DNA of 64,000 bases from Anaerocolumna chitinilytica (lineage in GTDB: Bacteria > Bacillota > Clostridia > Lachnospirales > Lachnospiraceae), in contig NZ_AP023368.1 of assembly GCF_014218355.1 (NCBI RefSeq), forward strand, positions 1,182,001 through 1,246,000, read 5' to 3'. Shown here in pieces: positions 34,918-56,698 of the stretch. The position numbers and the translations under genes are program-made. The notes below the pieces were generated by a model that was not told where the DNA came from, made no database searches, and saw only the letters and a program-made list of their open reading frames with translations. Positions within the stretch are counted from its first letter, which is position 1; every line of letters begins with the position of its first letter.

Positions 34918-34969
34918 AAAGAAAGGCAAAGAAAATAATACCTCATCTTCCATCCTCCGTGGAAATATA

Positions 34970-35160
34970 GCGGTACAGACAATAAGCAGGTATTCTGGCT
35001 TGTGGATCATTATCAGCTATACATCTTCCCAGGCAGACACCCAGTGACTGCGCAACCCAAAAGGATTGACACACTTATAGCAGACTCCTCACATACAGCG
35101 GCGGGACCGCACAGGATTTGAACCTGTTTCCCTATTATGTCACATCATTACAATATGACA
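34970..35160 (-). ncRNA. cobalamin riboswitch
   Basis: On the minus strand I can read the conserved aptamer blocks in order: the B12-box region AATCCTGTGCGGTCCCGCC (about 35098-35117), CACTGGGTGTCTGCC with CTGGGAAG (about 35024-35043), and the 3' block AGCCAGAATACCTGC (about 34984-34999). Spacing agrees with the class. Ends are approximate. It should turn off the DUF4430/ECF-S operon when adenosylcobalamin or related corrinoid is plentiful. Confidence 0.93.
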
Positions 35161-35409
35161 ACTTACTGTCTTTAAGACTTATAAAGTATATCATTGAGAA
35201 GGAAAGCTGTCAATTCCTGTTCTGTAACTTTTAGATAAGTATAAGCATCAGAAAGATGGGATATCATAATAGCTCTTAGGCATTTAAATTACATATCCTG
35301 CATACCTATTCCAGTAACTTTTACTTGGTAAACTATGAAAGATATACTTGAACTTTTGGCAGAGATAGGCTATTCTTATAAATATAAACAGAACAGAAGG
35401 AGAAGCATT

Positions 35410-53685: not shown

Positions 53686-53714
53686 TTGCAAACGGAAGCC
53701 ATCTGTGATAAACT
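53686..53714 (+). promoter_or_regulatory. predicted promoter of the attenuator leader and ABC exporter operon
   Basis: TTGCAA (53686-53691), a 17-base spacer and TAAACT (53709-53714). Transcription would start near 53721, giving a leader of about 330 bases before the ATPase gene. Confidence 0.65.
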
Positions 53715-53743
53715 ACAAAAAATCTTTTTTGGAGAAAACTACC

Positions 53744-53791
53744 ATGAATCGTTCACTGCATTGTCTACCAATTATTATCATCGAAAGCTAA
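53744..53791 (+). CDS. leader peptide, 15 codons with four consecutive isoleucines
   Basis: GGAG at 53731 precedes ATG 53744, which encodes MNRSLHCLPIIIIES and then TAA. The Ile codons are ATT ATT ATC ATC. The last three codons (GAA AGC TAA) are complementary to TTAGCTTTC at 53829-53837, so a ribosome at the end of this ORF would control folding of the leader RNA. Confidence 0.6.
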   Translation: MNRSLHCLPIIIIES

Positions 53792-53924
53792 TTCCTGTAA
53801 CTATGATTAATACCCATAGATGCAGGACTTAGCTTTCTTTGCATCTATGCGGTGAATGAAGATAAATGAAAGACCGCATTATAATATTTCCTATTTGGAA
53901 AATCATTATATGCGGTCTTTTTTT
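53783..53924 (+). promoter_or_regulatory. predicted transcription attenuator with alternative hairpins and terminator
   Basis: Pairings seen: A, 53783-53795 with 53825-53837 (13 positions, one mismatch); B, ATAGATGCA 53816-53824 with TGCATCTAT 53840-53848 (9 bp); C, ATGCGGT 53847-53853 with ACCGCAT 53873-53879; D, terminator AAAGACCGCAT 53869-53879 with ATGCGGTCTTT 53910-53920 plus inner stem and T7. A and B are mutually exclusive, C and D are mutually exclusive, and B and C share two bases. Confidence 0.65.
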
Positions 53925-54054
53925 ATTCTTATTCTAGTATTGCATTGCATAGGAGCTTTGGCTGCATTATATGGTGATTGAGGAAGGCTGCTCTGGAGAC
54001 CGGAAGCTGAAACTAAAAAAGATGATTTAAATATCTAAGGGAGGAGTTAACAGT

Positions 54055-55026
54055 ATGGAGGCTATTACTGCAGAGGAGCTGCAAAAAACCTTTAAGGTAA
54101 AACAGAAGAAAAAAGGACTAAAAGCGAGCCTTGCCGCTTTTGTAAAGACAGAGTATAAGGAGGTGGAGGCTGTAAAGGGTATCAGCTTCCAGGTAAAGGA
54201 AGGGGAAGTACTGGCGTTTATCGGACCTAACGGAGCAGGCAAGAGTACTACAATTAAGATGTTGACAGGGATTCTTTATCCGGATGGTGGGAGAATGTCT
54301 GTACTTGGACTGTCACCTACCAGAGACAGAAAGAAACTGGCCTATGAAATCGGTACTGTTTTCGGGCAGAAAGAACAGCTCTGGACACATCTAACCCCCT
54401 ATGATAACTTTATGTTCTTTGGGAAGGTTTATGATTTGAGTGAAAAGGAAACCGTCAGCCGCATTGAGGAGATGGCTGAAAGCTTTGAATTAGGAAGCTT
54501 CATCAATACACCGGTGAGAAATCTTTCTCTTGGTCAAAGAATACGCTGTGAGATTACTGCTTCTCTGATACACAGACCTAAGATACTTTTTTTAGATGAG
54601 CCTACCATAGGCCTTGACCCCGTTGTAAAGGAAAATATCAGGGGATTTATCAAAAAGTTGAATAGACAATATAATACCACCATCTTCTTAACCAGCCACG
54701 ATGTTGGTGACATTGAGAAATTATGCAAACGTATGATAATTATCAATAATGGCATAGTTGTTATGGATGATGCTATGGATAACCTAAAATACAATTATCT
54801 GAACAGAAAGCAGGTGGAAGTCAGATTGAAGGAAGATGTAGAGATTAAACGAAAAGAAGGTGTGCAGCTTATAAAGAATAAAGGCCTTGAAAGAAGATTT
54901 GAAGTGGATACGAAAAAGTGTCAGGTAAATGAACTTCTAAGTCTCATTGACGGAGATAACATTATGGATGTTAATATCTCAAACATACCTCTGGAGAAAA
55001 TAATCACAGAAATCTATAAGAGATAG
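54055..55026 (+). CDS. ABC-2 type exporter ATP-binding protein
   Basis: A 323-aa ATPase of the ABC-2 drug/lipid exporter class (COG4586-like). Walker A is GPNGAGKST (57-65), the signature LSLGQR is at about 163, Walker B is ILFLDEPTIGLD and the H-switch is TSHDVGD. The N-terminus has an extra basic stretch (KVKQKKKGLKASLAAFVK), as in that group. GGGAGGAG before ATG 54055 fixes the start. It is followed by two permeases. Substrate unknown; the attenuator suggests a translation-linked inducer. Confidence 0.93.
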   Translation: MEAITAEELQKTFKVKQKKKGLKASLAAFVKTEYKEVEAVKGISFQVKEGEVLAFIGPNGAGKSTTIKMLTGILYPDGGRMSVLGLSPTRDRKKLAYEIGTVFGQKEQLWTHLTPYDNFMFFGKVYDLSEKETVSRIEEMAESFELGSFINTPVRNLSLGQRIRCEITASLIHRPKILFLDEPTIGLDPVVKENIRGFIKKLNRQYNTTIFLTSHDVGDIEKLCKRMIIINNGIVVMDDAMDNLKYNYLNRKQVEVRLKEDVEIKRKEGVQLIKNKGLERRFEVDTKKCQVNELLSLIDGDNIMDVNISNIPLEKIITEIYKR

Positions 55027-55113
55027 GGAATCAGCACATAGATGAGATGAATTGGGTTGTAACAGCAGCCTGTATGAATGTGGTTTGATAACTGCATAGA
55101 AAGGAAGAGAATT

Positions 55114-55920
55114 GTGGTAAAAAATCCGGCTAAAAAATATTATTACATCTTTCGGGTCAGCTTTATGGAAAATCTTCAATACCCGTTAAATTGCATTCTG
55201 GGCTTTCTCAGTTATTTTATTATGATATTTTTATTCTTTCAGTTATGGAATTATATCTATGGAGATGCCTCTAAGTTAATCGCGGGATATACCAGAACGC
55301 AGATGATCTGGTATGTTATATTTACTGAAATCATGTGGTTCGGTACGAGAAATGCCACCCTGACAGGAGGAATGAGCAGAGATATCAAGAGCGGAACGGT
55401 TGCTTATGCCATGAATAAGCCATACAGGTATCCATTGTATATACTATCAAAGTATTTTGGTGAAATCGGCTTCCGTTTTCTGTTGTATTTTATTATGGGA
55501 AGTATTATGGGGGTAGTCATGCTCGGGAATATACCGGCCTTTCGTTTTGCAACTGTTGTATGGGTGCTGCCGGTTATACTCTCAGGGTTACTCGTAAACA
55601 GTCTTATAAGAATCTGTATCAGTCTGCTGGCTTTTTGGGTGGAGGATTCTCTTCCCTTCCAGTGGATTTATGATAAGCTTTTAATCGTAATTGGTATTAT
55701 GTTTCCGGTGGAGGTATTTCCAAAGATATTACAGCCTGCAATACGGCTATCCCCTATCTATGCGGTTACTTATGGGCCGGCTAAGCTTTTGGTGGATTTC
55801 TCCTTTGGGGTGTACCGCCAGGTACTTCTGGTACAAATGGGATATCTTTTTACATTTTCTTTGCTTTTGGTTTTAGGCTATAGGAAGGGGGTTAAGAAAT
55901 TAAATGTTAACGGAGGTTAA
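55114..55920 (+). CDS. ABC-2 exporter permease, first subunit
   Basis: A 268-aa permease with six hydrophobic helices of the ABC2_membrane_6 family (COG4587-like). The frame opens at 55078, but AAGGAAGAG and GTG 55114 (MVKNPAKKYYYIF) match the expected short cytosolic start. It pairs with the next gene to form the membrane channel. Its end overlaps the next ORF by 17 bases. Confidence 0.88.
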   Translation: MVKNPAKKYYYIFRVSFMENLQYPLNCILGFLSYFIMIFLFFQLWNYIYGDASKLIAGYTRTQMIWYVIFTEIMWFGTRNATLTGGMSRDIKSGTVAYAMNKPYRYPLYILSKYFGEIGFRFLLYFIMGSIMGVVMLGNIPAFRFATVVWVLPVILSGLLVNSLIRICISLLAFWVEDSLPFQWIYDKLLIVIGIMFPVEVFPKILQPAIRLSPIYAVTYGPAKLLVDFSFGVYRQVLLVQMGYLFTFSLLLVLGYRKGVKKLNVNGG

Positions 55921-56698
55921 AAGTGAAATTCAAATCCTGCTATTAACCGTCAGGTATAATATCATGAGAGAGATGACAAATAAAGCGGCATTTATAACCA
56001 ATGTTCTGTTTATGATGTTGAATAACTCTACTTTTATTATACAGTGGGCGGTATTGTTTCATCTAAAGAAGGAAATTGGTGGTTATGGTATGAAAGAGAT
56101 CATCTTACTTTGGGCGCTGGCCGCCAGTTCTTATGGTTTCGCACATATCTTCTTTCATAAGGCCTTTAGTTTATCTGATCTCATAACGGAAGGGAAGCTC
56201 GATGCGTTTTTAGTACAGCCGAAAAGTGTGTTATTATCAGTAATATCCTCGTCCACCAGCCCTCCGGCTATGGGAGATCTGCTGTACGGATTTGTATTGA
56301 TATTTTTTACGGGAATCACGCCTTTAAAATTCCTGTTGTTTACTTTGTTTACCATAACCGGAGGACTTTTATATTCAGCCTTTGCTGTAATAACCGGAAG
56401 TATTTCTTTTTGGATTACAAGAGGAGATCTCATTGCGATGAATCTTACGAATACTATGGTGAACTTCTCCACTTATCCTGACGGGATATTTAAAGGCCTT
56501 ATAAAAGTATTGGTTTATACCTTGATTCCTATTGGTTTTTATATCTATCTGCCTGTTAGCATATTGCTGCATCTAAATCTTATATACTTAGGACTGGTAT
56601 TCCTGGTTACTGTTATTATCATCAACATTGCCTTTGCGGTATTTTATAAAGGACTTAGGCGTTATTCCTCCGGAAATCTAATGAGTGCAAGAGTTTAA
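55904..56698 (+). CDS. ABC-2 exporter permease, second subunit
   Basis: A 264-aa permease with six helices (COG3694-like). The segment YGFAHIFFHKAFSLSDLITEGKLDAFLVQP is typical of the family: a helix end followed by the conserved G-xLD-xxLxxP loop that faces the ATPase. ATG 55904 lies inside the preceding gene and has GGAAGGGGG upstream. No terminator is evident after it. Confidence 0.9.
   Translation: MLTEVKSEIQILLLTVRYNIMREMTNKAAFITNVLFMMLNNSTFIIQWAVLFHLKKEIGGYGMKEIILLWALAASSYGFAHIFFHKAFSLSDLITEGKLDAFLVQPKSVLLSVISSSTSPPAMGDLLYGFVLIFFTGITPLKFLLFTLFTITGGLLYSAFAVITGSISFWITRGDLIAMNLTNTMVNFSTYPDGIFKGLIKVLVYTLIPIGFYIYLPVSILLHLNLIYLGLVFLVTVIIINIAFAVFYKGLRRYSSGNLMSARV

What the first reader, a model, noticed from the sequence alone, without database searches (positions are those of the whole stretch)
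53686..54055. Leader-peptide attenuator ahead of an ABC-2 exporter operon
Seen: a promoter, a 15-codon ORF (MNRSLHCLPIIIIES) with a ribosome binding site, and four pairings in a chain. The ORF end pairs with 53825-53837, 53816-53824 pairs with 53840-53848, 53847-53853 pairs with 53873-53879, and 53869-53879 pairs with 53910-53920 plus T7. Known: such layouts control amino-acid operons and some antibiotic-resistance genes. Inferred: a ribosome reaching the end of the ORF blocks the first pairing, favours the second, and frees the terminator. Early stalling or poor initiation gives the first and third pairings and read-through. The four Ile codons could instead sense Ile-tRNA. Inducer unknown.
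Basis: partly seen in the sequence, partly recalled or inferred. Interest (0 to 1): 0.75.

Follow-up and report, generated by a model that had tools for sequence, protein, structure and literature searches.

The report
Ribosome-read switch ahead of exporter genes
Ahead of a three-gene membrane exporter lies an RNA switch that most likely lets the genes be read only when a ribosome pauses on an isoleucine-rich mini-peptide; the same switch scaffold, with other amino acids in the mini-peptide, sits ahead of genes for enzymes that load those amino acids onto tRNAs.

Summary
The leader at 53686-53930 is real. The four pairings are present, fold far better than shuffles and recur with compensating changes in orthologous leaders. 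With no ribosome this favours termination, so "poor initiation gives read-through" is not supported. Masking a ribosome in silico gives anti-termination while it sits mid-ORF, up to the Ile codons. A covariance model finds the scaffold upstream of argS (leaders ...LRRR...) and of two AspRS subfamilies (...NRDDD...), the codon box naming the amino acid. Sub-threshold matches to Rfam RF04312 ("trpB motif", in print a riboswitch candidate) upstream of hisZ carry HHH boxes. The window's leader is thus an outlying member of a swappable-codon attenuator family, here with an Ile-rich box ahead of an ABC-2 exporter. Trigger unresolved: Ile-tRNA shortage or drug-dependent nascent-peptide arrest; the box is less tandem than in relatives and resembles (recalled) ErmCL/ErmAL motifs. 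In passing: many exporter orthologues elsewhere carry instead a covarying RNA element with no Rfam match in the loci scanned.

The parts
53686..53714 (+). promoter-like TTGCAA-N17-TAAACT (TGA before the second box)
   Evidence: read; similar boxes in relatives by eye; not listed by the scan
53731..53734 (+). Shine-Dalgarno GGAG of the leader ORF
   Evidence: purine-rich SD-like sequence before most leader ORFs listed
53744..53791 (+). leader ORF MNRSLHCLPIIIIES with stop; Ile codons 10-13 (53771-53782)
   Evidence: a leader ORF in 21 ABC-2 leaders, four more
   Evidence: MFE; self-vs-cross permutation
53783..53805 (+). segment B, ORF end and beyond; pairs with C
53815..53837 (+). segment C; pairs with B, or by 53815-53824 with D (53840-53849)
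53840..53859 (+). segment D, three competing partners: C (53840-53849), A (53847-53859), E (53847-53853)
53868..53879 (+). segment E, 5' arm of terminator; 53873-53879 pairs with D as anti-terminator
53910..53924 (+). segment F, 3' arm of terminator (53910-53921) overlapping T7 (53918-53924)
54055..55026 (+). ABC transporter ATPase
55078..55920 (+). permease 1, no Pfam hit; start may lie nearer 55129 judging by relatives
55904..56698 (+). permease 2, PF06182 ABC2_membrane_6

Best explanation
A ribosome-mediated transcription attenuator controls an ABC-2 exporter operon. Untranslated RNA: A pairs with D, B with C, E is free, the terminator forms (OFF). Ribosome that runs to the stop: B is covered, C pairs with D, terminator forms (OFF). 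Ribosome held at about codons 3 to 9-12, as it meets the Ile-rich box: A is covered, B:C forms, D is left to pair with E, the terminator is broken (ON). Sequence, pairing and conservation are shown; the switching logic is computed from folding; the trigger is inferred. My leading trigger is slow decoding of the Ile codons (low charged tRNA-Ile, or an inhibitor of its charging), because in the same scaffold elsewhere the codon box names the amino acid of the controlled gene. Given the mechanism, I put about 0.5 on Ile decoding, 0.35 on antibiotic-dependent nascent-peptide arrest, 0.15 on something else.
For: Fold z -8.85. Pairings in 21 orthologous leaders (20 for E:F) are stronger within a leader than between leaders: A:D, B:C, C:D and E:F all 0 of 20000 permutations as good; four control pairings, run on the 17 non-redundant leaders, flat. 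Within groups: group I 0, 0, 163 and 1 of 20000; group II 724, 1700, 566 and 631 of 20000. Alignment A5: B:C plus E:F with 14 of 23 pairs changed on both sides, 0 of 500 shuffles; C:D 4 of 10 such pairs, 8 of 500, and 4 of the 12 predicted pairs on A4. Ribosome masking, single footprint: an ON window (D:E 0.6 or more at some codon) in 18 of 21, OFF without a ribosome (0.31 or less) in 17 of 21, OFF at the stop (0.3 or less) in 19 of 21; first box Ile codon in the A site gives D:E 0.5 or more in 13 of 21, 0.89 in the window. Same scaffold upstream of argS with RRR and of AspRS genes with DDD boxes (NCBIfam on 9 of these proteins). Ile in box codons 7-14: 44 of 176 residues against 29 of 258 outside; at least one in 21 of 22 leaders.
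Against: Masking fails for L056, L062 and L073 (no ON window); L047, L050, L057 and L064 are not OFF without a ribosome; L050 and L052 are ON at the stop. When all RNA upstream of the ribosome is masked too, 12 of 21 exceed 0.3 at the stop. In the aaRS control only 23 of 32 leaders could be scored; 15 of 23 are ON with the first cognate codon in the A site, 6 of 11 Asp leaders are ON without any ribosome, and the window genome's own argS leader (L182) never turns ON. Three tandem Ile in only 3 of 22 ABC-2 leaders, while all 32 Arg and Asp leaders of the comparison have three cognate codons in a row (that comparison set was picked by its boxes). Ile is not concentrated in the box beyond other hydrophobics (389 of 5000). 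No link between Ile and this exporter is known to me. In group II segment A overlaps the Ile codon, so pairing could itself preserve it.
Confidence: 0.8

Rival explanations
1. The Ile-rich stretch is a drug-dependent arrest peptide of the ErmCL/ErmAL kind: a macrolide or another 50S drug stalls the ribosome on I-x-(V/I/L)-(I/V), and the exporter is a resistance pump. The scaffold came from amino-acid attenuators but its sensor was recoded.
For: Exporters and resistance genes behind drug-sensing leader peptides with transcription attenuation are known (bmrCD, PMC4191407, passages; msrD, PMC10314930, passages; mef(E)/mel, PMC4335068, passages). I.[VIL][IV][ESRQKD] occurs in 7 of 22 peptides; shuffling within codons 7-15 reaches that in 3 of 5000. 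The Ile run is not conserved as a run. Recalled, from no call: ErmCL IFVIS and ErmAL IAVVE.
Against: The relatives of the scaffold with a recognisable box mostly carry the amino acid of a metabolic or tRNA-charging gene downstream. The motif was chosen after looking at the peptides. 15 of 22 peptides lack the full motif.
Confidence: 0.35
2. Generic sensor of slow translation without specific codons: any slowing in mid-ORF turns the operon on, the hydrophobic codons being incidental.
For: The computed ON window spans many codons (3 to 9 in the window); bmrCD responds to several 50S drugs (PMC4191407, passages).
Against: Ile density in codons 7-14 is more than twice that outside, present in 21 of 22; sister leaders use specific boxes.
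Confidence: 0.15
3. The structured leader is a metabolite-binding riboswitch, as proposed in print for the distant relative RF04312, and the ORF is incidental.
For: Sub-threshold match to RF04312, 32.9 bits against a cut-off of 59, E 0.0047; RF04312 is listed as a strong riboswitch candidate (PMC11109978, passages).
Against: The ORF takes part in two of the helices and both covary; codon boxes match the downstream genes in relatives, HHH before hisZ included; the same paper says a classic attenuator cannot be ruled out.
Confidence: 0.04
4. Plain terminator of an upstream transcript plus chance complementarity.
For: An intrinsic terminator is present and the leader lies in an intergenic region.
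Against: z -8.85 for the leader, covariation, a promoter-like box and ORF ahead of the terminator in relatives.
Confidence: 0.01

Closest known systems
RF04312 'trpB motif' (Narunsky et al. 2024, PMC11109978; passages read)
   Same: A 5' hairpin whose right shoulder carries the anti-terminator, then a terminator; aligns to the window over its full length 1-107. Model R2 of the scaffold, built without them, also matches RF04312-type leaders (L259-L263, L265, L266, E 4.6e-9 to 7.6e-3).
   Different: 32.9 bits against a gathering cut-off of 59. In print it is a riboswitch candidate near amino-acid genes; no leader peptide and no ABC-2 exporter in the passages I saw.
Amino-acid leader-peptide attenuators (trp and his of enterobacteria; his attenuators of Eubacteriales, Erysipelotrichales and the Bacillus cereus group, PMC9413887, passages read)
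   Same: Codon box, alternative hairpins, intrinsic terminator.
   Different: Target is an ABC-2 exporter; the box is Ile-rich but mostly not tandem; the ORF start forms a stem that enforces OFF when untranslated.
bmrB-bmrCD of Bacillus subtilis (PMC4191407, passages read)
   Same: [quoted passage not shown] abolishing leader translation lowers expression and abolishes induction there, as predicted here.
   Different: There a 53-residue ORF with the terminator inside it; a different transporter; induced by 50S drugs, untested here.
msrDL / mef(E)L / erm leaders (PMC10314930, PMC4335068; passages read)
   Same: Short ORF, ribosome stall prevents a terminator.
   Different: MTASMRLR and MYLIFM do not look like this box (by eye); drug sensing is not shown here.

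Membership tests
Ribosome-mediated transcription attenuator | Short ORF with ribosome binding site ahead of a conditional terminator | tested here: met
   ORF, SD and terminator in the window and in 21 ABC-2 leaders. Translation itself was not measured.
Ribosome-mediated transcription attenuator | Mutually exclusive, conserved stems linking ORF position to terminator or anti-terminator | tested here: met
   the anti-terminator stem D:E itself hardly varies, so covariation does not test it
Ribosome-mediated transcription attenuator | Read-through changes with ribosome stalling in vivo or in vitro | not testable with these tools
   needs Term-seq or in vitro transcription-translation
Amino-acid (codon-box) attenuator for Ile | Tandem cognate codons conserved at the stall position | tested here: inconclusive
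   Four tandem Ile in the window and Ile in the box in 21 of 22 leaders, but three in a row in only 3 of 22
Amino-acid (codon-box) attenuator for Ile | Controlled gene serves that amino acid | tested here: inconclusive
   ABC-2 exporter of unknown substrate; no PDB relative of permease 1 by sequence at E 0.01
RF04312 trpB motif | Score above the family's gathering cut-off | tested here: not met
   32.9 against 59 bits; nothing in the window leader at gathering
Macrolide-type arrest-peptide leader (ErmCL/ErmAL) | Arrest motif in the peptide | tested here: inconclusive
   7 of 22 carry I.[VIL][IV][ESRQKD]; reference motifs recalled
Macrolide-type arrest-peptide leader (ErmCL/ErmAL) | Drug-dependent stall | not testable with these tools
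   needs toeprinting
T-box | Match to the Rfam T-box model | tested here: not met
   no T-box among matches to the leader at gathering or at E up to 10

The most novel reading that the evidence does not exclude
One modular attenuator scaffold, found in Lachnospiraceae and other families of the same class, has a plug-in codon box (Arg for argS, Asp for two AspRS subfamilies, His for hisZ, Tyr- or Phe-rich for sodium-dependent transporters), and RF04312 belongs to it rather than to the riboswitches. In the ABC-2 branch the box has been recoded from a cognate-codon counter into an Ile-rich arrest peptide, so that an aminoacyl-tRNA-synthetase-type switch now drives an exporter against translation inhibitors.
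Probability: 0.3. Interest if true: 0.78.

Novelty: new variant of a known kind. Interest (0 to 1): 0.62.

Why it matters
It offers a testable explanation for RF04312, an RNA of more than 900 examples filed in print as a riboswitch candidate, as leader-peptide attenuators with exchangeable codons. It shows such a scaffold shared between tRNA-charging genes and an exporter, so its Ile box names a candidate inducer (Ile-tRNA shortage, IleRS inhibitors, or macrolide-like drugs) for an orphan ABC-2 family. Orthologous exporters elsewhere carry a second, strongly covarying RNA element without an Rfam match in the loci scanned, a second route to the substrate.

Tried and rejected
Exporter substrate from homology: Pfam and NCBIfam give only ABC-2 and a DrrA-like ATPase below cut-off; no PDB relative of permease 1 by sequence. 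MAFFT alignment of whole leaders misplaced ORF starts, so A:D was tested without alignment by duplex energies of own against foreign partners. A first C:D count on A5 was off by one column and was repeated. Paper search for the exporter families by COG and Pfam number found one unrelated paper. Searches for this leader or for argS/aspS leader attenuators in print listed none that I recognised from titles and abstracts; that covers only the held open-licence library. PMC2965389, searched for argS, arginyl, phytofermentans and aminoacyl-tRNA, has none of these words. RF04312 hits L264, L267 and L268 look like plain terminators and were not counted as leaders. R1 hit L131 looks like a false positive.

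Dropped rows: L038, L053, L068 and L073 from the non-redundant runs and the group tests; L056 from E:F (no CCGC found); L056 and L048 from alignment A4; L071 has the RNA but no clear ORF. In the peptide counts, L038 and L053 were dropped and L068, whose peptide is identical to that of L067, was not entered. Five exporter loci lack a complete ATPase start or upstream DNA (L041, L051, L054, L055, L103). Of 26 decoded DDD leaders, 18 went into; L162 and L173, whose boxes differ, were left out; 9 of 32 aaRS leaders could not be scored. The scan kept the best 80 of 86 loci.

Full report
WHERE IT IS. The window lies in a 5.6-Mb genome. Contigs of same-genus genomes have the lengths of records named Anaerocolumna (G010:C114 and JAQSXJ010000064.1, both 40284; G011 and CP121445; G012 and CP133190), so the genus is most likely Anaerocolumna (Lachnospiraceae). 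That is inference from equal lengths.

THE OBSERVATION. All elements of the finding are there, within a base or two of the stated coordinates. The leader RNA 53716-53930 folds at -73 kcal/mol against -34.1 (sd 4.4) for 200 shuffles, z -8.85. I name the segments A (53749-53761, ORF start), B (53783-53805, ORF end and beyond), C (53815-53837), D (53840-53859), E (53868-53879), F (53910-53921). A:D is new and forms 13 pairs in the minimum-energy structure.

RELATIVES. Permease 1 has close orthologues (E below 1e-89) in 7 of 15 genus genomes, the window's included, and all seven have the leader. One scan of 84,980 species genomes found 86 relatives of permease 1 and kept the best 80. Model R1 finds the leader on the coding strand in 19 of these 80 (17 of the 19 were in the alignment the model was built from, L056 and L071 were not). 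L048 has it by eye but was missed, so 20 of 80. Their record titles name Lachnospiraceae (Anaerocolumna, Lachnoclostridium phytofermentans, Herbinix, unnamed Lachnospiraceae) and, for L038, Clostridium sp. KNHs205. Some of these loci are the same genomes as the G handles (for example L037 is G010). I decoded 21 leaders with ORF, stems and terminator, later four more peptides (L118, L121, L122, L203; checked). L122 is a remnant: the leader RNA runs straight into permease sequence. One genus genome (G013) keeps a decayed leader with no exporter matched nearby; one locus (L058) keeps the promoter-like box but has lost the rest (by eye).

COVARIATION. Because the ORF starts cannot be aligned reliably, I compared the duplex energy of each leader's own two segments with that of segments taken from different leaders. 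For A:D, B:C, C:D and E:F no permutation of 20000 does as well, with all leaders (21; 20 for E:F) and with 17 non-redundant ones (16 for E:F); four pairings not proposed (A:C, B:D, A:F, B:F), run on the 17, show nothing. Leaders fall into two groups by sequence, so I repeated this inside each group: group I (n 10; 9 for E:F) 0, 0, 163 and 1 of 20000; group II (n 7) 724, 1700, 566 and 631 of 20000, weaker but in the same direction. Column-wise counts agree: RNAalifold on 19 core sequences gives the C:D stem with 4 pairs changed on both sides and the D:E stem nearly invariant; on 20 sequences that include aaRS leaders, B:C and E:F have 14 of 23 pairs changed on both sides and 93.8% of cells paired, against 33-47% when slid; C:D 4 of 10 pairs and 90% of cells paired, though one of its five measures (further pair types) is reached by 52 of 500 shuffles. 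D:E hardly varies, so covariation says nothing for or against it.

HOW IT SWITCHES. I masked a ribosome footprint (12 bases before to 15 after the P-site) at each codon and computed whether E pairs with D before F is made (recounted). For the window: no ribosome, D:E 0.00 and A:D 0.85; P-site at codons 3-9, D:E 0.8 or more; later codons and stop, D:E low. Over 21 leaders: an ON window (0.6 or more) in 18, OFF without a ribosome (0.31 or less) in 17, OFF at the stop (0.3 or less) in 19. Exceptions are L056, L062 and L073 (no ON window), L047, L050, L057 and L064 (not OFF without a ribosome), and L050 and L052 (ON at the stop). With the first Ile codon of the box in the A site, D:E is 0.5 or more in 13 of 21 (window 0.89). 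If everything upstream of the ribosome is masked as well, that rises to 18 of 21 and the window's ON range reaches codon 12, inside the Ile run, but 12 of 21 leaders then exceed 0.3 at the stop. So the direction (mid-ORF stall ON, finished or untranslated OFF) is well supported for the window and most relatives; the exact codon is not. The window's stop lies three codons before the homologous stop of its nearest relatives (IIIIES*FL* against IIIRSRFL*).

THE SCAFFOLD FAMILY. R1 in 397 family genomes matched 12 and in 15 genus genomes 11; several matches lie upstream of other genes. R2, built from exporter group I, argS and AspRS leaders, matched 26 of 397 and 13 of 15. I decoded 47 of the places listed by those two calls. 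Fourteen have an RRR leader; in 11 of these the next long ORF looks like ArgS, in L158 and L159 it does not, in L185 only a later piece was read. Twenty-six have a DDD leader, mostly before what looks like non-discriminating AspRS, in L166 and L172 before bacterial AspRS. NCBIfam names nine of these proteins, at or above a curated cut-off: ArgS for four (L126, L141; L163, L182), aspartate-tRNA(Asn) ligase for three (L149, L139; L205) and bacterial aspartate-tRNA ligase for two (L166, L172); the rest are named by eye. Odd members: L173 has NGNNN before a methylthioadenosine/adenosylhomocysteine nucleosidase; L162 has LERREEERRLL before a methyltransferase-like gene (by eye). L178, L179 and L200 show no leader. 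The window genome holds three members: the window, an argS leader (C1:5233642, L182) and an AspRS leader (C1:3344848, L205). R1 and R2 contain the window and many of these leaders, so such hits are by construction.

RF04312. Against Rfam the window leader reaches no gathering score, but RF04312 'trpB motif' matches over its full length at 32.9 bits (cut-off 59), E 0.0047 (0.0027 on a shorter stretch). Narunsky et al. 2024 (PMC11109978, passages) list it as a strong riboswitch candidate with more than 900 examples, near trpB and mostly near an uncharacterised ABC transporter resembling amino-acid transporters, and add that an attenuator cannot be ruled out. I searched 216 genomes of the window's class: 10 matched at E 0.001 or better, none above the cut-off; of 14 control genomes one (Lactococcus lactis) matched, below the cut-off. 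Of the 10, five precede hisZ-like genes with leader peptides carrying 3 to 5 tandem His (L260-L263, L266), two precede sodium-dependent transporters with Tyr-rich (L265) or Phe-rich (L259) peptides, and three look like plain terminators. HisZ is the best family for L260, L262 and L263 (above a curated cut-off only for L263); fragments of L266 and L261 also match HisZ, the latter about as well as HisS. The transporter is confirmed for L259 (its gene read as L271); for L265 only a weak fragment match. R2, which had not seen them, matches these seven at E 4.6e-9 to 7.6e-3. His attenuators in some Eubacteriales, Erysipelotrichales and Bacillus were already in print (PMC9413887, passages). The joining of all these into one scaffold is mine, and none of my RF04312 hits passes Rfam's own cut-off.

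WHAT THE BOX READS. In codons 7-14 Ile makes 44 of 176 residues against 29 of 258 elsewhere, and 21 of 22 non-redundant peptides have at least one. But three cognate codons in a row occur in all 14 Arg and 18 Asp leaders compared (sets picked by their boxes) and in only 3 of 22 exporter leaders, and Ile is no more concentrated in the box than other hydrophobic residues (389 of 5000). The motif I-x-(V/I/L)-(I/V)-(E/S/R/Q/K/D) is over-represented even against shuffles within the box (7 of 22, 3 of 5000), though I chose it after seeing the peptides and after recalling ErmCL and ErmAL. In the aaRS leaders used as a control, 23 of 32 could be scored and 15 of these 23 (7 of 12 Arg, 8 of 11 Asp) have D:E of 0.5 or more with the first cognate codon in the A site (18 of 23 with all upstream masked), with clear failures: L182 is never ON, and six Asp leaders are ON without a ribosome. 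So family logic speaks for Ile decoding; the loss of tandem codons and the kind of target speak for drug-dependent arrest. Measurement must decide.

WHAT IS KNOWN. Leader-peptide attenuation of exporters is known for bmrCD (PMC4191407, passages): removing leader translation there lowers expression and abolishes induction, the behaviour A:D predicts here. The paper searches made listed no description of this leader that I recognised from titles and abstracts; the library excludes most subscription journals. I rate it a new variant of a known kind.

Noticed in passing
L072:2207-2273 and 68 other matches in 45 exporter loci; model R3: Many orthologous ABC-2 exporter loci without the attenuator carry another structured RNA: 42 of 80 loci at E 3.6e-6 or better, 3 more weakly, none of them among the 20 with the attenuator (29 of the matches built the model), often in tandem. 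Three helices, 98.9% of cells paired, 59 cells changed on both sides; four of five measures beat all 500 shuffles, further pair types do not. A terminator-like stem overlaps the closing helix by eye. No Rfam 15 match in the loci scanned. A riboswitch-like candidate of unknown ligand.
   Followed up: partly
L238, L245 (leuA-like genes); L244, L246, L247 (acetyltransferase and methyltransferase genes): The R3 element also precedes 2-isopropylmalate-synthase-like genes, there followed by Leu-rich leader ORFs (MFIVSNTTNLLLNLLLRL, MKNNNVKFYNALLLGLLLRL), and GNAT acetyltransferase and methyltransferase genes. In 296 genomes of the class of one carrier it occurs in 4, the carrier included.
   Followed up: partly
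L044-L046, L049, L069, L113-L116: A longer variant of that element (AAGAGTTTATCTAA...GAGC...TTACAC...GGAGTCTTAA) precedes the exporter in further Clostridia; R3 finds only L044-L046, weakly.
   Followed up: no
RF04312 hits L259-L263, L265, L266: The Rfam 'trpB motif' riboswitch candidate appears to have leader ORFs with tandem His (before hisZ) or Tyr/Phe-rich codons just upstream.
   Followed up: partly
L173 (G061), L162 (G128): Members of the scaffold with an Asn box (NGNNN) before a methylthioadenosine/adenosylhomocysteine nucleosidase gene and with a mixed Glu/Arg box before a methyltransferase-like gene.
   Followed up: partly
window 53834-53839: TTCTTT just before segment D fits the NusG pause consensus TTNTTT mentioned in PMC10314930; most group II leaders have a TTNTTT there too (by eye).
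   Followed up: no
window 34968-35181 (-): Cobalamin riboswitch, 99.6 bits.
   Followed up: no
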